Source: Sabellastarte sp. h YS-2021
Taxonomy: Eukaryota > Annelida > Polychaeta > Sabellida > Sabellidae
Direction of reading: 5' to 3'
DNA length: 64,000 bases
Assembly: GCA_964017235.1 (NCBI GenBank)
Contig: OZ024930.1
Coordinates: forward strand, 157,604,221 to 157,668,220
Part shown: positions 3-55,969 of the stretch, in pieces
Layout of the letters: the number at the start of each line of letters is the position of its first letter
Position numbering within the stretch: the first letter of the stretch is position 1
The notes under the pieces: model-generated
The model's input: only the letters and a program-made list of their open reading frames with translations
What the model was told of the DNA's origin: nothing
Databases searched by the model: none
Program-made: the position numbers and the translations under genes

Positions 3-1196
3 AAACTTATTTCAATTGATGACATTGTTAAAGAAATTTTGGACTTGCATGACCCCATGTTATTTAAAATCGACGTTGCCAGAGCATTTCGAAACTTAAG
101 AGTCGATCCTGTAGATGTTATGAAGTTAGGTATGAGTTGGGGTGGCCAGTATTATCTGAGTTCAGCAGTTGTTTTTGGCTGGAAACATGGTACAGCTAGT
201 TTTCAATTAGTAGCCGATGCAATAGCTTATATTATGGCCCAAGAGGGCTGTAAAGTACTGGCCTATGTGGATGATTTTTTGGTAGTAGCTGAGCGTCACA
301 TGGCATTAGCATTTTATAACAGGTTATCTAACTTGTTTACTGAGCTAGGACTGCCAATGAACTTGGACAAAAGAACCCCTCCAGCTAAATCGCTAACTTG
401 CTTAGGTATCTCCATTAACATAGAAGCAAATACTCTCAGTATTGATAATGCAAAACTTGTAGCTATTTATGAAGAATGTATCCATGTAATTGGTAAAAAA
501 TACCTGACAAAGAAATCCTTCCAATCTTTATTAGGTAAGCTCATTTATATTCATAAATGTGTGGCACCTGCTAGAATTTTTATCAATCGGATGCTAGCTG
601 TGTTTAGGGAAAATGCTAATAAGAAGCGGATCAGGTTAACCGAAGAATTCTTTCAGGATCTTACATGGTTTCTAGAATTTTTACCTACTTTTAATGGAAT
701 TACATATTTAGTTAAAACTGAGGTATTAGGTGAGAATTATGTATACTTAGATGCATCATTGACTGGTCTAGGAGCAATATGGAATAACAGAGTTTATAGT
801 ACACCCACATTTTCAATCCCAGGATTTCAGCTTAAGATTGTTCACTTAGAGATGCTGAACATCGTTTTAGCTTTGCGAACTTGGGGTTCCTACTGGCAAC
901 ATCACAAAATAAAAATTTTTTGTGACAATTTAGCTGTCGTTCAGGTGGTCAAATCTTCCAAAACTAAAGACAAATTTTTAGCAGCTTGCATTCGCAATAT
1001 TTGGTTGATTTCAGCTTCAAATGATATTGAGATTGTTATTGAACATATTGAAGGAAAAAAGAATGTCCTAGCTGACCTTCTGTCGAGATTACACTCTCCT
1101 GCAGGGGTGAGTAACACCCTTCTCACTTTATTGAATCAAAAGTATACATGGGAAAAAGTAAATATTAGTAAATTTGACCTTAATCTGACCTTGTAA
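3..1196 (+). CDS. DIRS-type reverse transcriptase-RNase H ORF, 5' end outside window
   Basis: The reading frame is open from the window edge, so the true start is not visible. The first part carries the RT palm: KIDVARAFRNL near 70-100, then the catalytic YVDDF motif around 262-276. The second part is an RNase H domain with LDASLTGLGAIW (about 748-783), HLEMLNIVLAL and a C-terminal NVLADLLSR. This RT-RH fusion with no integrase or protease is typical of DIRS/Ngaro tyrosine-recombinase retrotransposons. It makes cDNA from the element RNA. No stop or frameshift interrupts 398 codons, so the copy is fairly young. The recombinase ORF follows in another frame with almost no gap. Confidence 0.88.
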   Translation, partial: KLISIDDIVKEILDLHDPMLFKIDVARAFRNLRVDPVDVMKLGMSWGGQYYLSSAVVFGWKHGTASFQLVADAIAYIMAQEGCKVLAYVDDFLVVAERHMALAFYNRLSNLFTELGLPMNLDKRTPPAKSLTCLGISINIEANTLSIDNAKLVAIYEECIHVIGKKYLTKKSFQSLLGKLIYIHKCVAPARIFINRMLAVFRENANKKRIRLTEEFFQDLTWFLEFLPTFNGITYLVKTEVLGENYVYLDASLTGLGAIWNNRVYSTPTFSIPGFQLKIVHLEMLNIVLALRTWGSYWQHHKIKIFCDNLAVVQVVKSSKTKDKFLAACIRNIWLISASNDIEIVIEHIEGKKNVLADLLSRLHSPAGVSNTLLTLLNQKYTWEKVNISKFDLNLTL

Positions 1197-1198
1197 TT

Positions 1199-1630
1199 TC
1201 AGGTGGAAATTCATCTTCTGCACCACTTTTGCAGTCAGCTTGGACAAGAGTTTCTTCAGCTTTTCGACCTTCAACCAACAGAGCTCATCAACTACATTTT
1301 CAAACATTTTTAGCGTTTGTGTTATTCATGAAACTGCCAGTGAATTTTTCGCTACACAACATTCTTGCATTTCTTGAATACCTGTATCAGAACCACATAT
1401 CCCCGCAGGTGATAAAGAATTATGTTTCATCTTTAAATTCTATGGCCAGAACTTATAATATTCCAGCTGAGGACCTGTCACATGTTACAGTGGCCCATTA
1501 TCTCAGAAGTATTTCCATCAATTCGACTTTCAGACCTACTCCTAGGGGCATCTTTGACATTCGAACATTATATCACATTTCAAAGGCATGTGACAATTTA
1601 ACTGATCCACTACACTTCCCCCCTCTTGAC
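1199..1630 (+). pseudogene. DIRS tyrosine recombinase, N-terminal part only
   Basis: The frame opens just past the RT stop at 1196 and is offset from the RT frame, as in DIRS elements where the recombinase follows RT. The visible part is the SAM-like, core-binding half of a tyrosine recombinase, with FRPSTNRAHQLHFQTFLAF, the helical FLEYLYQN segment and a DIRTLYHISKACD segment. The catalytic half with the R...H-x-x-R...Y residues is missing. Similarity to a recombinase fades near 1615-1630, where sequence belonging to the opposing gag begins. This copy cannot encode an active integrating enzyme. Confidence 0.75.
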
Positions 1631-1682
1631 AACTATGCTGATCAATCACAGCCAAGCTGTCCTCAGGTGATCGTTTCCATTC

Positions 1683-2906
1683 CTATTTATCATTCTTCTC
1701 AAGTGATTTGACCTTGAAATGACATTTGACCTCAGGGTGAGCCAAATAACGTCCTTGACGACTACAGAAAGCACAAAAATGTTTGTAGTTACCATGATGT
1801 GAGTCATGGGAGCAAGCTCCCTCATTGAAAAATTTACATGTCTTCCTCTGGTGAAGTTGTGACGCATTATTCGACGCTATATTCGCATTGGCCATTGCAA
1901 TCTGCGAGGCACTGAGTCGATTCAATGACCATTGGGTTGCATCCGCCCACGTAAGTGACCCATCTTCAATTTCATGCATGGAAGTAGCCCAAGCACTTTT
2001 GACCGCCTGCCATGGTAGAGATGTAGCATCTTTGAGCGCTAATATGACTTGTAGCAAAGCTTGTTTTGAAACGACAGCATCCTTCATTTGGTAAACATTT
2101 GAAAGTTGCCCAACTGCCCACTGTGTTAACGACAAGTCATCATACACTACTCTTTTCTTTCCCTGCCCACTATGGAACCCTTCATTCGCCCACCTGGTTT
2201 CTGGGGGAGCTTGGATTAGATCAGTTGTATTATAACGACCTGAGCGTCGTACTGTTGACGCCTTACCTTGAAATGCCTCCATTTTCGCGTGGCCATCATA
2301 TGTCGCCATGATCCGCGACACAGCTTGTGATAAAGTGGAATTCTGACGCAGTGATTCTAAACTGGGCACCACCGAATCATGATGTACATTCTGTTCAACT
2401 GTCCTCATTGAATCTGGAAGCAAGGGGTGGGGAATCTCCTGGTTGTTATCAGCCCCCATATGATCCGCCCTTCCTGTCGTTAGGTTGTGCCCTAACATAT
2501 AATTCGCACTTGTGGACCTAGATATTTGAGGTGCTACTGATGTGGCCATGGCGGTTACTGGGTTCGAATCAATGTGAACCCTTGATTGCTGTTTCCCAGT
2601 CAAGGGTGTCGAATTGACTGACTGTTGACGCTCCAATGCATCTATACGGTGGACAATGTCTTTATTGGCTTTGCTCATTTCTTGTAACAGTGTCAAAATT
2701 ACGTCATTCGTGTCTTTAGGAGCAGTGGAGGATATGACGGTGTCTTTGACGATGATATCTTCTGTACTTACAGGATGTTGCAGATATGATCCATTGTGTG
2801 CTGTAGCCTTTACCCTTGGTTTTCGAACTGATGTCTTTGCTCTTGCTGACGCTGTCACCTTCTTTCTCACATTAGTTACAGGAGTCTTTTTGTTTGCTGA
2901 TGACAT
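1683..2906 (-). CDS. DIRS/Ngaro-type gag protein
   Basis: An uninterrupted 407-codon frame starts at the ATG at 2906 (MSSANKKTP). The N-terminus is basic (many K and R, residues 1-40), as expected for nucleic-acid binding. The middle is polar and low in complexity. The C-terminus carries a Cys/His cluster, C-K-F-F-N-E-G-A-C followed by H-x5-H-x-C-x2-C...H...C, which resembles the zinc-binding end of DIRS/Ngaro gag proteins. It would package element RNA. It reads toward the RT/recombinase ORFs of the + strand, so either an inversion or a second element is present. A few extra in-frame codons upstream start with TTG and were not used. Confidence 0.75.
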   Translation of the reverse strand: MSSANKKTPVTNVRKKVTASARAKTSVRKPRVKATAHNGSYLQHPVSTEDIIVKDTVISSTAPKDTNDVILTLLQEMSKANKDIVHRIDALERQQSVNSTPLTGKQQSRVHIDSNPVTAMATSVAPQISRSTSANYMLGHNLTTGRADHMGADNNQEIPHPLLPDSMRTVEQNVHHDSVVPSLESLRQNSTLSQAVSRIMATYDGHAKMEAFQGKASTVRRSGRYNTTDLIQAPPETRWANEGFHSGQGKKRVVYDDLSLTQWAVGQLSNVYQMKDAVVSKQALLQVILALKDATSLPWQAVKSAWATSMHEIEDGSLTWADATQWSLNRLSASQIAMANANIASNNASQLHQRKTCKFFNEGACSHDSHHGNYKHFCAFCSRQGRYLAHPEVKCHFKVKSLEKNDK

Positions 2907-2945
2907 TTTATCCAGTAAAATGTATAAATACAAATTTAAAATCAA

Positions 2946-12579: not shown

Positions 12580-13322
12580 AGCCAGTAGATCAGCAATAGC
12601 TGATAATTTTATAGGCCCTTCTCAGGGCCACCAAATCTTCCAAAACAAATTATTTGAGCTCTGTTTGTTATCCAAAAAAAAACAAATAAAAAAATGCCCC
12701 ACACCATACAACACCCCCCAAAAAACCCAAAATAAATAACACAATCATTTCCCATGGTTCACCCATAGTGAATATAGTTGAATGAAAATAGAAGTTCATC
12801 CCAAATTAAAATTACAACCAAGACACAGGTCCCTACCCCCAAATACACACAACAATACAAACATTGATATATTATTTGGCAATCAACTTATGTCACTCAG
12901 AACCCCCCGCCAAAAAAAAAGCAGAAAAATCCGAAATTTTGTTAAAACCTGTGCCCAGAATGCTGTGGACCCCTCATTGCAACTCTCATGTAGTGATGTG
13001 GGGCATCTTTCTCTAAAATAATTACACTTTGTAGGACAAGGCCTTTCTTGCTTGCCTGTCCATTTTTAAAGCATCGTGTTTCACCCCTTTCCAAACCAAA
13101 GTTTATGCTACATTATTCAGCCAAAGCAAAGATGTCATTTAGGTCCAAATAGATGCTGTTGTTCTTGATGCTATTTTCCAATAAAATAAATGCAAAGAAA
13201 CTTAAAGCTTATAGTTGGCAATAATACAACAGCAAAATGATAATATATACACAAGCAATACTATGTGACATATGAATAGCAGAAGAGAGTAATTATCTTT
13301 CAAATGTAACAATCGTATACTA
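12580..13322. other. Central spacer of Harbinger B
   Basis: A- and C-rich non-coding DNA between the two converging genes. Nothing was recognised in it. Confidence 0.5.
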
Positions 13323-29659: not shown

Positions 29660-31650
29660 TGACAATTCTGCAATCAACCGTCGTACATATCGAGCTGCTG
29701 TCAATTGCTATAATTTTCTACTGGAACAGTCAAGACGCAGGAACTATTCTACAGTCATTGCTGAAAATAATGGTAATCCCAAGTGTCTGTGGAACACTTT
29801 CAAAAAATCTTACATAAATCCTCAACCATCATCTTACCTTATCACATTAGTCCTACTGATTAGTCAACACCTTTGGACATTTTTTTCAGTGACAAATTAT
29901 GAAAATCAGAGTTGAAGTACAGTCATCAGTGCTTGTTTCCCTTACAAGACCAAGAAGCAACAACAGCACCCTATCCTCCTTTGAGCATGTATCTGAGGGC
30001 AACATCCTCAAAGTCCTACATTCTTCCCTACCAAATCATGTCATCTATACCCGATACCAACTCATTAGTTAAAGAGTGTGCAGAAATTCTAGTCACTCCA
30101 ATTACCAATATTATATATTACTCACTCAAAGAAGGGAGCTTCACAAACTGCTTCAAAACCGCATATGTCACCCCCCTTCTCAAGAAACCTAACCTAGACA
30201 GAAATCTCCTCAAATACTACAGACTGGTGTCAAACCTTAGTTTCATATCCAAACTGATTGAAAAAGTAGTGGCTAAACAGCTAAATAGTTACATTGATAG
30301 TGAGGAGTTCTCAATGTTAACCAATCCGCCTACAGGAGATTGCATTCCACAGAAACAGCACTCCGGAAAATCCAAAGTAATATTGCTGCTTCGATGGACT
30401 CTGGTAAGGCTGCTGCGCTCACATTGTTGGACCTCTCAGTGGCCTATGACACTATTGACCATAACATTATTTATAGTTACCTCAAGGATTGGTTTGGGGT
30501 TGATGGCACTGTGTTAAGGTGGATCAAATCCTATCTTTCAATCCATAAACAGAAGGTTAAAATAGGTAATAGCTTTTCAGATGCCTTTTCACTCCCTTGT
30601 GGAGTGCCCAGGGCTCTGTGCTGGCCCCCTCCTTTTTGCCCTTTACACAACCCCTGAGTAATATTATTTCCAGTTTCAATGTCACGCACCATCTATATGC
30701 AGATGACACCCAAATATATCTAGCACTTGACCATAGCACCTTTTATTCCAGTTTTGCTGAGCTCACCTGAGTGTCTCACCTGTGTTCAAAAGTGGATGGA
30801 TGGTGTGAAATTGAAACTCAACCCAGCCAAAGAGTCCCCCATCCAAAAATTTCCAACCCACCTTCTATCTCCCTACTGATACAGTCAAGGACCTAGGTGT
30901 TACCTTTGACTCCGAAAACACCTTCACCAGCCACATAACCAGTGGTTGTTGCACCTGTTACTATCACCTCAAGGACCTAAGACGCATCTGCAAATTCCTC
31001 AGTGTGGACACTGCAGCCTTGCTTGCAAACTCAATGATCAGCAGTTAAGTTGACTACTGTAACTCCCTACTCTATGGCATAAGTAAATACAATGTGGCTA
31101 AACTCCAAAGGATTCAAAATTCCCTTTGCAGAATTGTTTTTAGACTTGGCAATACTAGCCATGTAACTCTCTTTCTTCAAAAACTACACTGGCTCCCCAT
31201 TACATACCGGTTTAAATATAATCTAATTACTTTCAAGGCCAATGAATTCTCTCAACTTACATACTTATCATCCTTGATCAAAACCAGTAGCCAACTCGTG
31301 GAAATCAGCCTTCTCTTTCCTCAGTTTGTCCTAGAAAGGCCGTTGGTAGGCAATGTTTTGCGATGGCTTCCCCCACCGAATGGAACAGACTCCCACTAAC
31401 AGTTTGTCACAGCACACAACAACAGGTTTCTGAAGCCAGTTGAAAACCTATTTTTTATACTAGCATATCCTCCACCACAGTACATCCCCCTGGTGGGTGC
31501 TAATTTGAATCTCGACCTGATATATCCCTGGACTTTCCCTTTTTGATCTTGAGCGCATTAGGATGTTGTATCATTGAGCGCATTAGGATGCTGTAACAAT
31601 TTTGCACTATATGTATGTTTCTATACTATTCTGTTTCTATTCTATTAAAG
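29660..31650 (+). mobile_element. CR1-like LINE, 5' truncated
   Basis: The insertion splits Harbinger C. It carries an RT ORF in several frames and a 3' end with a doubled TTGAGCGCATTAGGATG unit (near 31543-31590) and a TTCTATTCTATT tail. Such short 3' repeats are usual for CR1/L2-like LINEs. Confidence 0.75.
29912..31440 (+). pseudogene. CR1-like LINE reverse transcriptase, broken
   Basis: RT motifs in order: VTPLLKKPNLDRNLLKYYR, LVSNLSFISKLIEKVVAKQL (30220-30285), then in the next frame LHSTETALRKIQS and LTLLDLSVAYDTIDHN (30416-30465), FSLPCGVP (30590-30610), [15 protein letters not shown] (about 30685-30730) and a C-terminal thumb LHWLPITYRFKYN (about 31185-31220). At least four frameshifts or stops break it. 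Confidence 0.85.
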
Positions 31651-34011: not shown

Positions 34012-34560
34012 TTTGACTTATATTGTTTATTGTCAGGTTATAAAACTCCAATTTGTGTTTTTTAAAACTGTGGAACTCTTTGTTTATTCATTATTTTTAA
34101 GCTACATTAAGACTTTTGCATAGATTATACTAAAACATAGATCATAAGTTTGAAAATACATCCAAATTGTTATAATTCTCAAATATTTGCCTCGTATTAG
34201 CCATTCCAAACTGAAAATCCTTGGACATCTCAAAAACTATAATAGGTACAATATGTTAAAAAAAGACATAGCAATCTTTTGGAGTGATGATAAATATGCT
34301 AAACTTGACAGTATTTTTTTCATCCATTTCATGTAAATTAATCCTTTTTTTGTATTTATGACAGAGGGGAGAGCGAGCGGGTCCGCCAGCTCCCGCATTT
34401 TATATTGCTTATAGCTCGGCAACTTCTGTGCGGATTCTCTTCAAATTTAGCACATGTATGCAGTAGCCCTGAGAAAAATTTCTGAATATGGTGTCACAAC
34501 ATTTAAACCAATCACAGAAGTCACATGACCAAAAACATGTTTTTCAAATGGGTGTGCTTC
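34012..34560. other. Interior of the 4.5-kb element, left of the nested LINE
   Basis: AT-rich, then a GC-rich patch near 34365-34400. No coding potential was found. Confidence 0.4.
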
Positions 34561-34569
34561 TCCGAATGA

Positions 34570-36373
34570 TAACTTTAAAAGGACTTCACCTATTCGACGG
34601 CAGATAAACAGATGTAACCACATCCTAAATAGAAACAAGGGGTGTTTCTATCGTGATCTAGTCAGTGAAAATTGCGGCGATAGCAAGAGGTTATGGCATG
34701 CACTAAACAGAACATTGAGTCGGTCAAATTCTACTGTCCTCCCTTCCTTTGATGATGAAAAATCTTTAGCAAACAGATTTGGTTCGTTTTTCATTGATAA
34801 AATTAAAAAGATTCGAGACACCTTTAAATACACCCGATCTCAGGTTCTTCATCCAGACAAGGAGCCGCCGACTTTCTGTTCCTTTCAAGCTGTCACTGAG
34901 ACTGAAGTCCTTAAGTTTATCAAGGAATCCCCTTCTAAAACTTGCTCCCTTGATCCATGCCCCACTCACATTGTGAAACAATGCATTGACATTCTTCTCC
35001 CTTCATTGACTAAACTAGTTAACTTGTCCCTCAAAAACGGCATTTTCCCTAATCCTTTCAAACAGGCTATTGTCACTCCCCTCCTCAAAAAGTCCACCCT
35101 TTCAAAAGAGGATTTGAAGAGCTACCGACCAGTGTCCGGTCTTAGCTTCTTGTCAAAATTGGTCGAGCGAATTGTGGCTGCCCAAATTAGATCTCATATG
35201 GATTCTCATGATCTTGGTAATACTTTCCAGTCAGCCTACAAGGTGGGGCACTCGACAGAAACTGCCTTGTTGTGCATCAAAAATGAGATTCACTTATCTC
35301 TGTCCAAGGGCATGCCTACAGCACTAGTGCTACTCGACCTGTCTGCGGCATTTGATACTATCGATCATGACACACTCCTATCCTGTCTGTCGTCTAGATT
35401 TGGTTTTGCTGGATCGGCATTAAAGTGGTTTAGATCCTATCTCCAGGATCGTTTTCAGTCAGTCAAGATTGGTTCTAGTCTTTCGAATTTGTTCAAATTG
35501 AAGTTTGGAGTCCCCCAAGGTTCTGTCTTAGGTCCCCTTCTGTTTTCCCTCTACACAACACCTCTTGGTCAAGTCATCAGAAAATATACCGGAGTCCGTT
35601 ACCACTTCTATGTGGACGACACTCAGTTGTTCATTCACTTATCCCCTGATGATAGTCTCAAGTTTTTTGACCGTCTTAAATCATGTTTGAATGATATTCA
35701 GGTCTGGATGTCTGAAAACAAACTCAAGCTAAATCCTGATAAAACAGAATTTATAGTCTTCGGTGCCAAAGACAGATACAAATGGCTCAGTGACTCACTA
35801 CCTGTCAATATCCTGGGTAATTGCCTCTCTCCCGCAGATGTTGTACGCAATCTGGGTGTTCTGTTTAATGCAAAGTTTTGTTTCACCAATCACGTAAATT
35901 CTGTTATCAAATCCTGCTTTATCAGCCTCAGGGACCTTCATCGTATCAGGAGGTTTCTTTCTGTGGATACATCAGTGGTGATTGCAAATGCTCTGGTCAG
36001 TAGTCGTTTGGATTATTGCAACTCTCTTTTTCGCAGTTTGTCATCCCGAAACACTACAAGGCTCCAATATGTTCAAAATGCGCTTGATATTGAAAAATAG
36101 TTTCTCATATGATGCCCCTAAGTTATGGAATGATCTTCCATATGATATACGCAGCGCTCCAAATCTCTCCAGTTTCAAAAGTCGACTCAAAACCTACCTA
36201 TTTCAGAAATTATTCCCACCATAGCTTCTTACTACCGAACACCGGACCGCCTCCCTGGCAACGACTCGGAACATGTCTAATGTCTCATGATTTATGCCTT
36301 ACGGATTGGATGGTGTGCCTTAGAATCCGTTGATACGGAGATTAAGCACCTGGACAACTGATTGATTGATTGA
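34570..36373 (+). mobile_element. L2/CR1-like LINE, 5' truncated, nested in the 4.5-kb element
   Basis: Contains most of the RT and a 3' end with GATTAAGCACCTGG and a short TGATTGATTGATTGA tail (36359-36373). The similar 3' end at 61080 (GATTAAGCTCTATAAAAG) supports a common LINE family. Confidence 0.85.
34572..36224 (+). pseudogene. L2/CR1-like LINE reverse transcriptase with internal deletion
   Basis: One frame runs open from about 34572 to 36100 with all RT blocks: VTPLLKKSTLSKEDLKSYR, SFLSKLVERIVAAQI (35140-35185), GHSTETALL, LDLSAAFDTIDHDTLL (35332-35380), FGVPQGSVLGPLLFSLYT (35505-35560) and FYVDDTQLFIHL (35605-35640). It stops at 36100 just after LQYVQNA. The usual last block resumes in another frame (APKLWNDLPYDIRSAPNLSS, 36115-36170). 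About 100 codons of connecting sequence seem to be missing. The long open frame indicates a young insertion. No ATG begins it, because the 5' end is truncated. Confidence 0.85.
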
Positions 36374-40060: not shown

Positions 40061-41225
40061 AGATGACAGGAACACATCAAGAGCAACTGAGAGATCACTT
40101 GAGGGTCCTTCTGTTTTTTATTGAGTTAAATGTATTTTTATATGTTGTGATTACAACACACAGAAGGCAGCAGAACCCAGCACCTGCCCAGCCAGCATCA
40201 CCCCCAGCACCCAGAAGGAGAAGGAAGCGACAGAATCTGTGGGTACTGCCCTGGATACTGCAGAGAGAGGAGAGAGGTTGCTACAGAACACTCTTGGACG
40301 AACTGATCACTAGTGACATACCAGGCTACAGAAATTTTGCCAGGATGGAGCCAGCATTTTTGATTTGATTGAAGAATCACCCCCCACCTCAGGAAGTCAA
40401 TCACCAACTTCAGGAAGCCACTGGAAGTCGGCTTGAAACTGGCAGTTACTTTGAGACACTTATCTCACAGGGGAAAGCTGCACCTCACTGCAATACCACT
40501 GGAGGGTTGGAAGATCAACCATCTGCAAGTTTATCCCCTAGGCATGCAAAGCCATTTTGAAAGAATTTCAACAAGAGTATCTGGTGTGCCCCACTGATCC
40601 TGAAGACTGGAAGAAAATTGAACAAAGATTTAGAAACAGATGGAATGTCCCCCATGCAGTTGGTGCATTAGATGGAAAACACATTGCTATCACGAAGCCC
40701 AAGAAATCAGGCAGTGAATATTTCAACTACAAGGGCTACTTCTCCCTGGTACTTTTGGCTTTAGTCGATGCAGATTACAAGTTCCTGTGGGTCAATGCGG
40801 GGGCCAGTGGGTCATCATCTGATGCACAGATTTTCAACCGCAGGAAACTGAAAAGAAGAATTGAGAACGGAAGGTTGGGACTACCACCACCTGAACCACT
40901 TGGACCTGGGGGGCCAGATCTACACTACTTCCTGCTGGGGGATGACGCCTTTTCCCTGATGCCATGGCTGGTCAAGCCTTACAGTAGACGCCAACTGACC
41001 AGAGAAGAGAGAATAGCCAACTACAGGATATCCAGGGGGAGAATGGTGGTCGAGAACTCATTTGGTATACTTGTCAAGCGATTCAGGGTGCTGTTGACCA
41101 CCATGGAGCAGAGGCCAAATGTTGTGAGAGACATTGTGTTAACATGTGTTGTACTACATAACATGTTGAGAAGTCATCAGGGGTCATCATTCACACAATT
41201 TTGTTTGTACTGTGGGGAGGTGTAA
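40061..41225 (+). pseudogene. PIF/Harbinger DDE transposase, nearly intact
   Basis: An ATG at 40061 opens MTGTHQEQLRDHLR, followed by a basic, Pro-rich region and LLDELITSDIPGYRNFARM (about 40290-40350). A frameshift near 40360-40400 leads to ITNFRKPLEVGLKLAVTLRH, and a TAG near 40540 replaces the Gln of the family PQVC motif. From there the catalytic domain is open to 41225: RWNVPHAVGALDGKHIAI (first Asp near 40671), FSLVLLALVDADYKFLWVN, FLLGDDAFSLMPWL (second Asp near 40941) and VVENSFGILVKRFRVLL (Glu near 41052). The end after LRSHQ differs from element A and looks truncated. All three DDE residues are present, but the N-terminal breaks disable it. Confidence 0.88.
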
Positions 41226-50429: not shown

Positions 50430-51900
50430 GGGGCCTATTGCACCAGGAATGTGAAGAATGTTGCCCGCTTTGTCTAAGGCTTCTTGGATTTCTCCATATC
50501 TATAAATGTTGTGAACAGTGATCTAATCTGTCCAAAGTATGCTAGCAAATCCCCACAAAAGCCAGGATTCCCTGTGAGTAAGAGTAAAACCTGCATAGGG
50601 GTCTCGTTCTGGCTTGATACAATTGTCTCTGCCATACTTTCTACACTACTAGGGCACTTCGAAATGTCATGCCTCCCAGAATGATGGGTGAAGTTTGGAC
50701 ACCTTTACTTGATGAAATTATGACGATCCACTTGAATTAAACCACACTTTTGGTAACAGACAATAGAAAAATGTGTGAATTATTTTTCACGAATCCACAT
50801 TTTTCAGCTTGAGAAGCCACACTTTTAAGTTTGAGAATTCACACTTTTTATGTAAAGAATCGACACTTTTTAGATAAAAAATCACACTTTTTAAATTGCT
50901 TAATTTAATGGCCCTGATTATAATGTAATCAGGTAAACATAGTCTGTCAATTTCAGTTTTTTTAAGAATTTTGTTTTATGAGCCATCATTCTAACAATTT
51001 ACACATATAAACCAGAGTAGTAAAAATACATACAAATCAAGCTCTTCACACTGTATCAAAATTATAAGCATTTCACAAAAGACACTGACTTTGAAACAAG
51101 CAATCTTAATATTTGGAACAAAAATTGCTTTCAACATTTATGAGCAATTTTACAATCCCTGGTGTATTTGGTGATGTGTACAATGACTGAAGCACAATTT
51201 TTCTTTATCCAACAATGCAAAACATTTTGTAAAAAACACCATGTGTGACCCACATCCATTTTAAATCATTTTCATATTGCTGTAGGTGTATTTGAATTGA
51301 GATGATATCATGCAAATCCTCAGCAGGAAAATCCTCCACCCAAAGTGAAGCAGTGAATGAAATCCAGCAAGTCTGAAAACAATTTTAGATAAAAATATAC
51401 AATGAAATATTATTTGATGCTAAATGCATTTTGGGAACAGTATTTGATGATGGTGTTCTTCTGAGAAACTAATACAGAATTTTGTTTTGTCATTTGAAAG
51501 GGCAGTCAATAATTCAAATGGCAAGACTTTCGGCCTCATATTTTCTGATTCACAAATCCACACTTTCTCGTGATTTCTCCTACACAGAAGTACTTGTGAT
51601 GATTTGTGGGATATGAGACTTCACAAATGAGATTCAGTTTTCAAGCCAGGCTTAATGGGCTGTCATTTCATGTGGTACACTACCTCGCTTTGACTTCCGT
51701 AGTGATAGTTTCCCATATTGGGTACCTTGTGAGCCAAACCAGGTCCTGGTACCAATGACTTTCTAGTCTGTATGCTACTTCTTGCCACATTTTCTCCCTC
51801 AAACAGCGGTTCTTAAATAACTTGTGTCTCTTGTCATTGAGGCCTTGATGTTCCACCATAAACTCCAATATGGCCTCCTTATCCACTTCAGTAAAACATG
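50430..51900 (-). pseudogene. Fragments of another Harbinger-like element (F)
   Basis: At 51886-51680 the minus frame reads FMVEHQGLNDKRHKLFKNRC followed by MWQEVAYRL, and in a shifted frame TWFGSQGTQYGKLSLRKSK. This matches the Myb/SANT-like domain of D and E (FDKQHEELYDKTN, KKWFDTQCTRYGKLTQTK). At 50500-50430 EIQEALDKAGNILHIPGAIG loosely resembles the GFPGVIGAIDG block of transposases. The first match is good; the second is weak. Between them lie an iteron array and AT-rich DNA. Confidence 0.5.
50742..50893 (+). repeat. CACACTTTTT iteron cluster
   Basis: Copies of (T/C)CACACTTTTT start at 50742, 50794 (variant), 50816, 50839, 50861 (CGACACTTTTT) and 50882. The last four are 21-23 bp apart. 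An inverted AAAAATGTGTGAA lies at 50768. No inverted partner array was found to the right. Confidence 0.65.
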
Positions 51901-51994
51901 TTGTGTTTTCTCTTCTTTATGCAGGCTGCTTTCTACGGAGCCCCTTATAGGACATGGTAAAATAAAAATTGCACCATGTATTAAGTCGTGCACA

Positions 51995-52175
51995 AAAGAT
52001 GATGTCGTGATAACGAGAAAATAAGTCGTGATAATGAGATGATCTCATTATAATGAGATAATAAGTCATGATAACAAGATCATCTCATGATATCAAGATG
52101 ATCTGGTGATAATGAGATCATCTTGTGATATCAAGATCATCTTGTGATAGTTATTTTCTTGTGATAATGAGATCA
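51995..52175. repeat. GTGATAATGAGATCATC iteron array
   Basis: TGAT-AATGAG or TGATATCAAG units recur near 52008, 52029, 52049, 52069, 52088, 52107, 52126, 52145 and 52162, mostly 19-21 bp apart. Each unit carries palindromic AGATCATCT or AGATGATCT. The array probably belongs to an older MITE that begins near 51940 (TACGGAGCCCCTTATAGG). Confidence 0.75.
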
Positions 52176-52192
52176 TCTTATTAGCACCACTT

Positions 52193-52233
52193 GTTTTCTT
52201 GATATCACAAATCGCTTATGGAACAACTCTAAC
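52193..52233 (+). repeat. 41-bp target duplication, left copy
   Basis: From GTTTTCTTGATATCACAAAT to GGAACAACTCTAAC. Identical to 54221-54261 except one base (G/A at 52213 versus 54241). Confidence 0.9.
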
Positions 52234-52467
52234 CAGTTCCCAAGAAGTTAAGGTTGCAGTGAAAAGCAATATGGGATTAAAATTTTTATTTAATTTAATA
52301 TTTTAAGTTTTCTACATCTACCTGATTTTTACCAGGCACATCATTTAAAATATTATACATTTTTTAACGATTGTATTTCCTTAACTGGCCAAAAAATCCC
52401 ACCCAGCAAGTGAAACATGAGTTTGAGCTTTAACCAAGGTCAGATCCAAGATGGCATTCCGACCTTC
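52234..52467 (+). repeat. Left direct terminal repeat
   Basis: Matches 53986-54220 almost completely; the main difference is the length of an A run near 52390 and 54145. The repeat ends in GACCTTC, which with the next bases forms a hairpin (GACCTTCAA...TTGAAGGTC, 52461-52481). Confidence 0.95.
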
Positions 52468-52853
52468 AACCCTTGAAGGTCAAGCTCATACGACAAGGTC
52501 AACGAAAGGGCAGCAGCTTGGTCAGTAGTAAATAATGACATATCTAAAGTCCTTTGGTTTTATAAACTGCCCAAACTGCCAGCCAATCGAGCAGTAATCA
52601 TGCAAGACACAGGAAGTCATGCAAGGTCAGGCAAGACCTTCAAGGTCAAAGAGAGGTCAAATTCCCAGCTGACAAACGTGGTCGGGTAAGGCAAGAAGGC
52701 CAGAAGCTAGTCAGTGTATTCTAAATCGCTGATGGTATTTGATCTTCATTTAACAATTAAAATGTAAGTATTTTGAGTAAAATAATTATGAATGATATAT
52801 AAACCATGTACAGGGTGAAGGAAAACTACCCTAAAAGTTAATTATAAAAGGTA

Positions 52854-53112
52854 GCTGCAAGTGCACGTCTGTGCATTGCCGTGTTGTAAGATAAATGAAT
52901 AAAAAAATAGATAATGTAAGACTGCAATGTTGTTCTGGCTAGCAGTAAATTGGTAATAACTGCAAGTGCACCACTGTGCATTGCAGTGTAAGCTGACGAG
53001 CAGATCCAAAGGAAATAATGCCAGCAGAAGGGAAAAATACAGTCTCATCTTACATTGCAGTAGTGAATGGGAACTGCAATTGCACATATGTGCAATGCAC
53101 TGTTAATGTAAG
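52854..53112 (+). repeat. Three related hairpins, about 100 bp apart
   Basis: CTGCAAGTGCAC...GTGCATTGC at about 52856, AACTGCAAGTGCAC...GTGCATTGCAGT at about 52958 and AACTGCAATTGCAC...GTGCAATGCA at about 53073 each fold into a 10-13-bp stem with a 4-nt loop and one bulge. Spacing is about 103 and 115 bp. Confidence 0.75.
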
Positions 53113-53985
53113 GTAGGTCAAAGTTAAATACAGGTTCATGAATATGTATTACAGTAATTCAGAAGATAAAAGGCAATAAGAACACACTGCTATCTAATTG
53201 TTGGAAGGGGTGGTCGTTGTGATCCCCTCACTAGATTATATTTTATTTTTCCTTAGTGACTGCACCATGCAGCCTCTGCTTAACAATAGTTTAGCTCATG
53301 ATCACAACTTAGCTTGATGACCACCCCTACCAACTAATGTTGTATGTATGCATTATGAAAGTATCTATAAAATATATAAAATATAAGACAGAGAATCATT
53401 GATATACATTGGCATCATGATAATATACAAATTTTACAGTTCATTATAAATATTTTTAGGTGGCACAAGCGACAACATAATTTTTTAATCTTCACACAGA
53501 AGCAAAGCATCACACAAAATGAAAACATTTGGCAGGCGTGAAAAACAGCAAGCTGGAGATATTGCATCACTTGACAGCACAACCACGTGTGAAGCAAAAC
53601 ACATATATTGTGTCCATAGGAATGAAGGTCCAGAAGCTGAACTAACTGGTAGCCTTCAACGTTGAAGTTTAACACTTGACCACCATGATATATATAGCAA
53701 TCTGGAAATATATAATTCTACAAGCAATAATACGTTACAAAATGACATAACATTTGCATTTCATTTAGGGAAGGGTTAAAAAAGAAAGGGTGGGCAAAAG
53801 TTTATAGGTGTTGCCTCGTGTGATTCCAACTTCAAAATGGCAGAGTGAAGGAGGGTTCAAAAGCGATGACCAATGGTCAACCAATCAGAAAGTGCCACGA
53901 GAAATTTTTGGATGAAGTAAAATAATTTAAGGTTTAAAGAACTTCTTCAGAACTGACCTCGGCCACACCTTCATGAGGCCCCGAA

Positions 53986-54220
53986 CAGTACCCAAGAAGT
54001 TAAGGTTGCAGTGAAAAGCAATATGGGATTAAAATTTTTATTTAATTTAATATTTTAAGTTTTCTACATCTACCTGATTTTTACCAGGCACATCATTTAA
54101 AATATTATACATTTTTTAACGATTGTATTTCCTTAACTGGCCAAAAAAAAACCACCCAGCAAGTGAAACATGAGTTTGAGCTTTAACCAAGGTCAGATCC
54201 AAGATGGCATTCCGACCTTC
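53986..54220 (+). repeat. Right direct terminal repeat
   Basis: Second copy of 52234-52467. Confidence 0.95.
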
Positions 54221-54261
54221 GTTTTCTTGATATCACAAATCACTTATGGAACAACTCTAAC
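54221..54261 (+). repeat. 41-bp target duplication, right copy
   Basis: Matches 52193-52233 with one difference. Confidence 0.9.
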
Positions 54262-54459
54262 TTGTGTTAAATTTTTACTCCCTCATTTTGTTTCATGTGT
54301 TTTGGGGGCATGTGTTTGGTGTGGAACGGTGTAAATGTTTTTTATTCCTTGTTATCAGATTTTTTTCAGCTTAATAATTGTTTTACGAAGATTCAGGTGG
54401 TCCTGAGGACTTATGAATCAGCAGTTGTCCTGGAAAGGAAATTTTAAATTGTAGGTAGG

Positions 54460-55969
54460 TGCAGTGAGCCTACTGCTCCTGCTGCTTGGGCTCAGATTAC
54501 TGCTAGGGGGGGACTTGGCTGGCTGCTGAGGAGCCTCTTGCTGCTGGGTGGTTGGAGGAGAGGCGACATGGAGATATGGATCACTTGGTGTTAACTGTTG
54601 AAGTGTATCCACTTGCGGGAAGCTCATGACTGTATATTCCCCAAAATGCTACAGAGTCTTGATATGTTGTGTGCACTTTCTTCACCTGTGACAGAGGCTA
54701 CTGATGGTGGGTTCAAGACCTTGCTTGGGTTGATGGTGAAATGTAGCTGTGTTGAAGTCCCGAGCTGTTGGTCATCAACAACTACGTAGGAAGTCTGTGG
54801 CCTTCTGAGTTGTTGCTGTCATCTGGTTGTATGACCTGGTTTGCTGGCATCTGGGTTTCTGGAATATGCAAGATGTATTCCATGGCAGAGGCTGCCGGTG
54901 ATAGGTTGTTGGCATATGTGGAAGTGGTACTGGAGTTCCTAGGAAATGTTGGTTGCTGTGGCTGATATGTCCTTTCCTCTCCCCTTTTCTGTAGCCCACT
55001 TAAAGGTTGACTGCCTCATTTAAAAGATCTGAAAGTCTCTTTCCTGTAAGTTTTCAACTTCTTATGCCAGGTAGTTGCAGAAGGCTGTTCTGGTGGTCTC
55101 CTACCTGTGGCCAAGGAAAGATGTAAACATAGTTTTCATCTGGGCAAATTGATCTATGACCTGAAGGTCGACTGATGAAGGCTAAGATACTACACTGGTA
55201 CTGGCAGTGCTGCATATGGATGGCTGGTGTGTTGTGTCAGAGTGGATGCTAGTCTAGATACCGTCAGTATCTGTGGACCCTCGTAAAATGTTGTGGGCTG
55301 TGGCTGCACTGGCACTGGCTCCTCTCTGTGGGGACTTGAAGGCTGAAGATTTGCTGAGTCCCTTCCTTCTGATATGGGTCTTCAAGAAGTTAAATTTATC
55401 CTGAATCCATTTCTGCCTCTCTGTCATTTCCTTGGGAGCCTGACCAGACTTGAACTGGGTGAGATTTCTGTAGTGAGTCATTTGGGATTCAAACCAAGTT
55501 TTGCACACCTTCACTGACAGGTTGCAGCTGCTTGCACACCTCCCCCACAGGCAATCCTTCCTGGCCTTGTCCTTGAACTTCTGATGGGTTTTGTCATAGA
55601 TCTCCTCATGATCCTTGACAAAGTCTACAATACCCTCCTCATCTGAGTCTGTTAAATACATATTTGTCATATGTGCTTCCTTGCACCTTGATTGTGATTG
55701 AGATATGCCAGCCTCAACTCCACCCTCTATGTCATTTCACTTTCGCTCCTTTTTGTTCTTGGTCTTTTTTCACCCACTCCCTCGCTGTGGACTTTGTCCC
55801 TCTCCCTCTCGTCCCTTTATTGTTTCTCTGCCTCCTCCCTCTCCCTCTGTTCTCTCTCCTGCCTCCTCCTCTGTATGTCACAAGCTGTATCTCCCAACTA
55901 AAACTCTGTAGGTGTGTCTGTGAGGACATCTATCTTCCTCACATTCTTTCTGCCCTTTTTAGGACCTAT
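54460..55969 (-). pseudogene. Harbinger E Myb/SANT-like gene, decayed
   Basis: The start codon is ATA (55967-55969) where A has ATG; the next codons GPKKGRKNVRKID match. The DNA-binding domain is the best part, open from 55670 to 55254: DSDEEGIVDFVKDHEEIYDK, LWGRCASSCNLSVKVCKTWF, QMTHYRNLTQFKSGQ and IRRKGLSKSSAFKSPQRG. An early TAG at codon 22-23 and later frameshifts break it. The Gln-rich C-terminus runs to about 54460, with the SGLSSLF motif decayed. Confidence 0.8.

What the first reader, a model, noticed from the sequence alone, without database searches (positions are those of the whole stretch)
52193..54261. Element with 235-bp direct terminal repeats and an exact 41-bp target duplication
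The order is X, L, interior, L, X: X is 41 bp (one mismatch) and L about 235 bp. Borders are exact. Classical LTR elements duplicate 4-6 bp and have TG...CA ends; L starts CAGT and ends CTTC. Penelope-like elements have LTR-like repeats and variable, often long target duplications, but no Penelope RT or GIY-YIG domain is visible in the 1.5-kb interior. This may be a short non-autonomous relative or a new kind of element.
Basis: partly seen in the sequence, partly recalled or inferred. Interest (0 to 1): 0.75.

Follow-up and report, generated by a model that had tools for sequence, protein, structure and literature searches.

The report
Truncated Ngaro-like tyrosine-recombinase retrotransposon copy
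The repeat-flanked element is a broken-off, non-coding copy of a tyrosine-recombinase retrotransposon family in an animal-like genome; what is unusual is that some such cut-short copies carry long duplications of the target DNA, which none of the complete copies examined has.

Summary
The X-L-interior-L-X structure is real, and X is duplicated target DNA: at 38 other places in the genome the left flank runs into the first 22 bp of X in one alignment. The interpretation changes: no Penelope domain, ribozyme or LTR end was found, and L is not a terminal repeat.

Copies elsewhere in the 1.79-Gb genome show a retrotransposon family for which window + is the antisense strand: A1(192 bp)-gag-like-RT-RNase H-tyrosine recombinase-B1(601)-A2(192)-spacer(959)-B2(601). 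These are split direct repeats, as in Ngaro/PAT-type elements of the order DIRS, but with a spacer between A2 and B2. The window copy is cut short on its 5' side: B1 (last 235 bp), A2, spacer, B2. "L" is the part of B present twice.

Of 22 complete copies, none has a target duplication, as expected for recombinase insertion. Of 16 copies counted as cut short, three have clear duplications (31, 41, 81 bp), one is probable (16-20 bp), two are weak (7, 9 bp) and ten have none. The likely reading: reverse transcription stopped early and the incomplete cDNA was joined to DNA without the recombinase. The family is a variant of a known kind; this side route is the interesting, unproven part.

The parts
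52193..52233 (.). X1, first copy of the 41-bp target duplication; its first 22 bp match the end of the interrupted inverted-repeat element
52234..54220 (-). the whole inserted element, 1987 bp; sense strand is minus
52234..52834 (-). B2 repeat, complete (601 bp); its window-left edge (CAGTTCCC, sense 3' end ...GGGAACTG) is the fixed 3' end of the family
52461..52481 (.). hairpin GACCTTCAA-CCC-TTGAAGGTC inside B; in B1 the copy breaks off inside this hairpin
52835..53793 (-). 959-bp spacer between A2 and B2, not found in the two larger copies A13 and A09; no Pfam match in the frames tested
53794..53985 (-). A2 repeat (192 bp); its window-right edge (GGCCCCGAA) is the 5' end of the sense unit
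53986..54220 (-). B1 fragment: last 235 bp (sense) of the 601-bp B1 repeat, cut short on its 5' side
54221..54261 (.). X2, second copy of the target duplication
51983..52214 (.). interrupted target: palindromic inverted-repeat element (MITE-like); 52149-52214 is the part found elsewhere in the genome

Best explanation
The element is a copy, cut short on its 5' side, of a tyrosine-recombinase (YR) retrotransposon with split direct repeats. Full structure in sense: A1-gag-like frame-RT-RNase H-YR-B1-A2-spacer-B2. Shown: the architecture, the shared ends, the nearly one-sided truncation, and the target duplication. Inferred: complete cDNA is made circular and put in by the YR at the B|A junction, leaving no duplication. 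Recombination between repeats or junctions leaves single A-body-B or A-spacer-B units. For the window copy, reverse transcription began at the exact 3' end of the RNA, copied B2, the spacer, A2 and 235 nt of B1, and stopped inside a hairpin. The incomplete cDNA cannot form the circle, so it entered a staggered break or nick by target priming or end joining, which duplicated 41 bp.
For:: 39 of 40 scored L matches start at base 1 of L; upstream flanks are unrelated in 33 of 35 rows (L018 and L022 have the A end there), while the far ends vary; two larger copies (5808 and 5911 bp) share 601 bp and 192 bp at their ends with the window unit; frames of the 5808-bp one match RT (PF00078, 9.1e-9), RNase H (PF13456, 1.8e-4) and YR (PF00589, 1.8e-5, 25.0 bits, under Pfam's cut-off of 27.1). 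A1/A2 187 of 192 and B1/B2 595 of 602 in L026; 189 of 191 and 584 of 593 in L030 (2 and 11 gaps left out); 190 of 192 and 603 of 605 in L042; of 17 further loci picked by A plus spacer, 16 have the exact B2 end (the 17th aligns from base 8) and 12 have B1 directly at A2; of 35 loci picked by L, 16 were counted as cut short on the 5' side; duplications in 0 of 22 complete copies; in 16 truncated ones three clear (31, 41, 81 bp), one probable (16-20 bp), two weak (9, 7 bp). B1 breaks off inside a hairpin with 9 paired bases. X is target DNA.
Against: Ten of the 16 truncated copies show no duplication. The statistics are thin: 4 of 16 against 0 of 22 gives one-sided p = 0.025, and 3 of 16 (without L021) gives 0.066. 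L021 overlaps an A-rich stretch like the element's. L017 may be interrupted rather than truncated: an A end lies 16.6 kb on in the same direction. The fetched stretches run 1.3-2.7 kb past each break, so a longer nested insert would be missed. L018 has only 38 bp of A2 beside B, a loss on the other side. Complete copies show no shared core between target and junction by eye, which a YR would normally need (recalled). No experiment was done.
Confidence: 0.75

Rival explanations
1. Penelope-like element: L is a pseudo-LTR made by a truncated tandem copy, inserted by target priming with a GIY-YIG nuclease.
For: Fixed 3' end, 5' truncation, a partial repeat and variable duplications are Penelope-like (PMC8969392 and PMC3846280, passages seen).
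Against: The larger partner codes RT, RNase H and tyrosine recombinase; the repeats are split direct repeats; no hammerhead family among the Rfam matches; the 22 complete copies examined lack duplications.
Confidence: 0.02
2. Truncated copies were moved in trans by a LINE of the same genome (target-primed reverse transcription of this family's RNA).
For: Fixed 3' end, 5' truncation and variable duplications; a non-LTR-like RT (RVT_1) with many relatives in the protein database is in the window.
Against: The ends show no poly-A tail (by eye). No LINE 3' end was compared, so this is little tested.
Confidence: 0.2
3. Truncated copies are recombinase insertions later cut by deletion or interrupted by nested inserts; the few duplications come from chance or later repair.
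For: Ten of 16 truncated copies have no duplication; L017 may be interrupted; L010, L015, L022 and L029 are rearranged.
Against: The 41- and 81-bp duplications abut the 3' end and lie 0 and 1 bp from the break; X is target DNA; loss is nearly always on one side.
Confidence: 0.12
4. Miniature LTR element (TRIM) or plant-type retrozyme.
For: Direct repeats around an interior without Pfam matches.
Against: L begins CAGT and ends CTTC, the duplication is 41 bp, no hammerhead match, and L is part of a longer repeat.
Confidence: 0.01

Closest known systems
Ngaro-like YR retrotransposons (order DIRS)
   Different: A 959-bp spacer lies between A2 and B2 (order given as B1A2B2 in PMC8547959 and B1, A2, B2 in PMC9210276, passages); some copies cut short on the 5' side carry duplications of 31-81 bp. 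An amphioxus Ngaro-like element with an unusual repeat arrangement is on record (PMC2632668, passage), so variation is not unheard of
DIRS1-like and PAT-like elements
   Same: YR retrotransposons; DIRS1-like insertion is described as leaving no duplication (PMC3266345, passage); PAT elements have split direct repeats (PMC4157794, passage)
   Different: No inverted terminal repeats or internal complementary region above controls; no methyltransferase match
Penelope-like elements
   Same: Fixed 3' end, 5' truncation, a partial repeat at the 5' side, variable duplications
   Different: Different proteins and repeat order; complete copies examined lack a duplication

Membership tests
Order DIRS (YR retrotransposons) | RT and RNase H with a tyrosine recombinase in place of DDE integrase | tested here: met
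   PF00078, PF13456 and PF00589 (25.0 bits, cut-off 27.1) in neighbouring frames of L009; no integrase-type DDE match in the five frames given
Ngaro-like | split direct repeats A1...B1, A2, B2, the internal ones after YR | tested here: met
   L026, L030, L042; A1/A2 and B1/B2 97-99.7% identical, gaps left out
Ngaro-like | B1, A2 and B2 follow each other directly (my reading of 'B1A2B2'; whether contiguity defines the group is open) | tested here: not met
   B1|A2 is direct, but 959 bp lie between A2 and B2
Ngaro-like | no methyltransferase domain between RNase H and YR | tested here: met
   no such Pfam match in the frames given; the RNase H and YR frames abut
Ngaro-like | RT falls in the Ngaro clade | not tested
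   no named reference RTs were used
Ngaro-like | insertion without target duplication | tested here: met
   0 of 22 complete copies; but the truncated window copy has 41 bp
DIRS1-like | inverted terminal repeats and internal complementary region | tested here: not met
   no shared 11-mer, direct or inverted, between the ends of A13; in A09 and the window unit nothing above 40 shuffles; a 14-of-16 inverted likeness between the 3' end and bases 31-46 from the 5' end is within the controls
Penelope-like | Penelope RT with GIY-YIG nuclease | tested here: not met
   no GIY-YIG match in 10 interior frames and 5 partner frames; the partner has RNase H and YR
Penelope-like / retrozyme | hammerhead ribozyme in the repeats | tested here: not met
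   no hammerhead family among Rfam matches up to E 5; one core pattern in the element, outside L, without a pairing stem (read by eye)
LTR retrotransposon / TRIM | TG..CA ends and 4-6 bp duplication | tested here: not met
   CAGT...CTTC, 41 bp

The most novel reading that the evidence does not exclude
A retrotransposon that normally inserts with its tyrosine recombinase has a second, recombinase-free route: incomplete cDNA is primed on or joined to broken chromosomal DNA, giving 5'-truncated copies with duplications of up to about 80 bp. The second route would be a general fate of aborted reverse transcription in YR elements.
Probability: 0.4. Interest if true: 0.6.

Novelty: new variant of a known kind. 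Interest (0 to 1): 0.42.

Why it matters
How YR retrotransposons copy themselves is known mostly from models (recalled). This family has complete copies without duplications, single units and truncated copies, some with long duplications, in one genome, so the order of steps can be read from the copies: where reverse transcription starts, where it stops, and which step needs the recombinase. It also warns that direct repeats plus a target duplication do not by themselves make an LTR or Penelope element.

Tried and rejected
Rfam scans of the window and of the element gave no ribozyme; all 13 listed matches in 51900-54500 are miRNA or snoRNA families below their gathering scores, 10 of the 13 on the palindromic flank. 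RNA folds of L2: z -0.32 on the plus strand, -2.46 on the minus strand, not pursued. Pfam on ten frames of the interior: nothing. No match in plasmids by blastn; exact patterns of 30 and 21 bases from L found nothing in viral contigs and prokaryote genomes. ARAGORN found no tRNA. NCBIfam and PDB searches of partner frames added only weak YR matches under cut-off and nothing. A first idea that the unit L+interior forms head-to-tail arrays, as in Penelope, was dropped once A1-body-B1-A2-spacer-B2 was seen. An early idea that the partner has no repeats at all was wrong: A13 and A09 are single A-body-B units.

Rows dropped: of the 35 loci picked by L (34 fetched plus the window), 16 were counted complete, 16 truncated, and L022, L024 and L029 were left out because an end was rearranged or not found. 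L022 gave a false 20-bp 'duplication' because both sides there are A ends. L010 and L015 are internally rearranged but were counted as complete on their two ends. For L011, L014, L023, L026, L030, L032, L034, L035, L041 and L064 only the two ends and nearby stretches were fetched, not the middle. Of the 17 loci, six (five single A-spacer-B units plus L064) entered the complete count; the other 11 run into B1 and their far ends were not fetched. In L070 the B2 border was set by offset, since the match begins at base 8. The hit C4:24050030 (1-262 only) was not fetched. L038 also has a 25-bp match at -299/+23, which by eye belongs to an inverted-repeat element in the flank. L040 has 6 matching bases, just above its controls but under my limit of 7. 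Genome counts are lower bounds: 40 of 179, 40 of 406 and 40 of 677 candidates were scored.

Full report
Observation. X1 (52193-52233), L1 (52234-52467), interior (52468-53985), L2 (53986-54220) and X2 (54221-54261) are present with exact borders. X is 40 of 41 identical, and L differs at three positions plus one gap. The window lies in a 1.786-Gb genome of 647 contigs, at C4:157604221-157668220. Its transposon proteins (RVT_1, DDE_Tnp_4, MADF) and a histone 3' stem-loop suggest an animal to me; the species was not identified.

X is target DNA. The left flank is a palindromic inverted-repeat element whose pattern runs on into X. With the two flanks joined at one X and searched in the genome, 38 places other than the window match the left flank and the first 22 bp of X in one alignment, most from query base 9 to 74 (40 of 677 candidates scored; some places are the two ends of one element). 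So X spans the end of an older inverted-repeat element and 19 bp of DNA next to it, and was duplicated when the new element came in.

L is not a terminal repeat. Of 40 scored L matches, 39 start at base 1 of L. In one search, 32 of 34 L copies begin with the same 12 bases; the flank before L is unrelated in 33 of 35 rows and is the A end in L018 and L022. On the other side 30 of the 34 fetched loci run past L into the window's interior to about base 363 or further, and L015, L018, L031 and L040 stop sooner. Of 20 stretches beyond base 367 compared, 19 share one further sequence, which in the copies translated codes for proteins. Window + is therefore the antisense strand, and CAGTTCCC is the fixed 3' end (sense ...GGGAACTG).

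The partner. Two copies followed to both ends are 5911 bp (A13 = L013+L043) and 5808 bp (A09 = L009+L044). In sense they read 192 bp, a gag-like frame, RT, RNase H, tyrosine recombinase, 601 bp. Pfam on frames of A09: RVT_1 9.1e-9, RVT_3 1.8e-4, Phage_integrase 1.8e-5 (25.0 bits, cut-off 27.1). The gag-like frame has no Pfam match; calling it gag rests on position. The two end parts (601 and 192 bp) are those of the window unit; the 959 bp between them in the window unit were not found in A13 or A09.

Full structure. L026 and L030 (with L050, L051) read A1-body-B1-A2-spacer-B2 between the two shared ends, 7935 and 7675 bp (the middles were not fetched), and L042 is the same with most of the body missing. 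A1/A2 and B1/B2 are 97-99.7% identical, gaps left out. C3:181810741-181819106 (L064, L065, L090) has the same order of ends. These are split direct repeats, as in Ngaro and PAT elements (PMC4157794, PMC9210276, PMC8547959; passages seen), with a spacer between A2 and B2. Of the 22 complete copies 11 are A-body-B, 7 are A-spacer-B and 4 have both. The single units look like products of recombination between the repeats; solo AB repeats are reported for Cafeteria Ngaros (PMC8547959), and a Ngaro-like consensus without split repeats for Xenopus (PMC9210276).

The window copy is B1 (235 of 601 bp), A2, spacer, B2: cut short inside B1, within a hairpin of 9 paired bases (52461-52481). L016 and L028 are alike but break off further on: B1 whole plus 106 and 179 bp of the body.

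One-sided loss. Of 35 loci picked by L, 16 were counted as cut short on the 5' side, 16 as complete, and 3 were dropped (and the far ends). Loci picked by L cannot show loss of L, so A plus spacer was used as a second bait: of 17 new loci, 16 have the exact B2 end and one aligns from base 8. L018 is the one copy seen with loss on the A side. Two cautions: L017 may be interrupted rather than cut, since an A end lies 16.6 kb on in the same direction, and a nested insert longer than the 1.3-2.7 kb fetched past the breaks would be missed. The pattern is what early stops of reverse transcription give, and not what random deletion gives.

Duplications. Complete copies: 0 of 22. Truncated copies: W 41 bp (40 identical), L019 31 (30), L036 81 (80), all above each of 20 shuffles; L021 19 of 20, of which 16 in a row are identical, but partly ambiguous because the element has a similar A-rich stretch; L039 9 and L038 7 are weak; ten have none. 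The offset allowed was 0-6 bp for complete and -25 to +25 for truncated copies; 17 of the 22 complete copies were also tested with 15-20 bp either way, and only L068 came just above its controls (6 of 7 bp at offset 11). One-sided exact test: 4 of 16 against 0 of 22, p = 0.025; 3 of 16, p = 0.066; 4 of 15 without L017, p = 0.021. This is suggestive, not firm.

Mechanism. Complete copies without duplications fit insertion by the recombinase, though no shared core was seen at the ends (by eye). Truncated copies cannot give the B|A circle; long duplications at some of their ends suggest target priming or end joining at a staggered break. DIRS1-type insertion is described as leaving no duplication (PMC3266345 passage). 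Four searches of the held library (listings, plus the passages cited) showed me no report of long duplications at truncated Ngaro or DIRS copies; that is not proof of absence.

Noticed in passing
52852-52884, 52957-52989, 53071-53103: Three copies of a 33-bp imperfect palindrome (CTGCAAGTGCAC..GTGCATTGCA) 105-114 bp apart in the spacer between A2 and B2; role unknown.
   Followed up: no
53194-53335: Likely nested palindromic insert in the spacer (GGGGTGGTC...GACCACCCC), read by eye.
   Followed up: no
34529-36100 and 29903-31399: Two RT regions; the first matches RVT_1, has many close relatives in the protein database and looks CR1-like to me from recall; the second is judged by eye.
   Followed up: partly
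40542-41225, 55254-55736, 51680-51916: Harbinger-like transposase (DDE_Tnp_4) and MADF frames (the third by eye); the element sits between two MADF fragments.
   Followed up: partly
1184-1711 (+) and 1683-2945 (-): A different YR-type fragment (phage-integrase N-terminal match under cut-off) beside a gag-like frame on the other strand (by eye).
   Followed up: no
12609-12655: Histone 3' stem-loop (Rfam RF00032, 37.8 bits).
   Followed up: no
L013:670-1616: Remains of another DIRS-like RT on the minus strand next to the complete copy A13 (by eye).
   Followed up: no
G000 C7:98910928 and C7:98915743 (by L041): Two A ends 4.8 kb apart in the same direction; the first ends in a unique flank, so a second copy seems to lie close by.
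   Followed up: no
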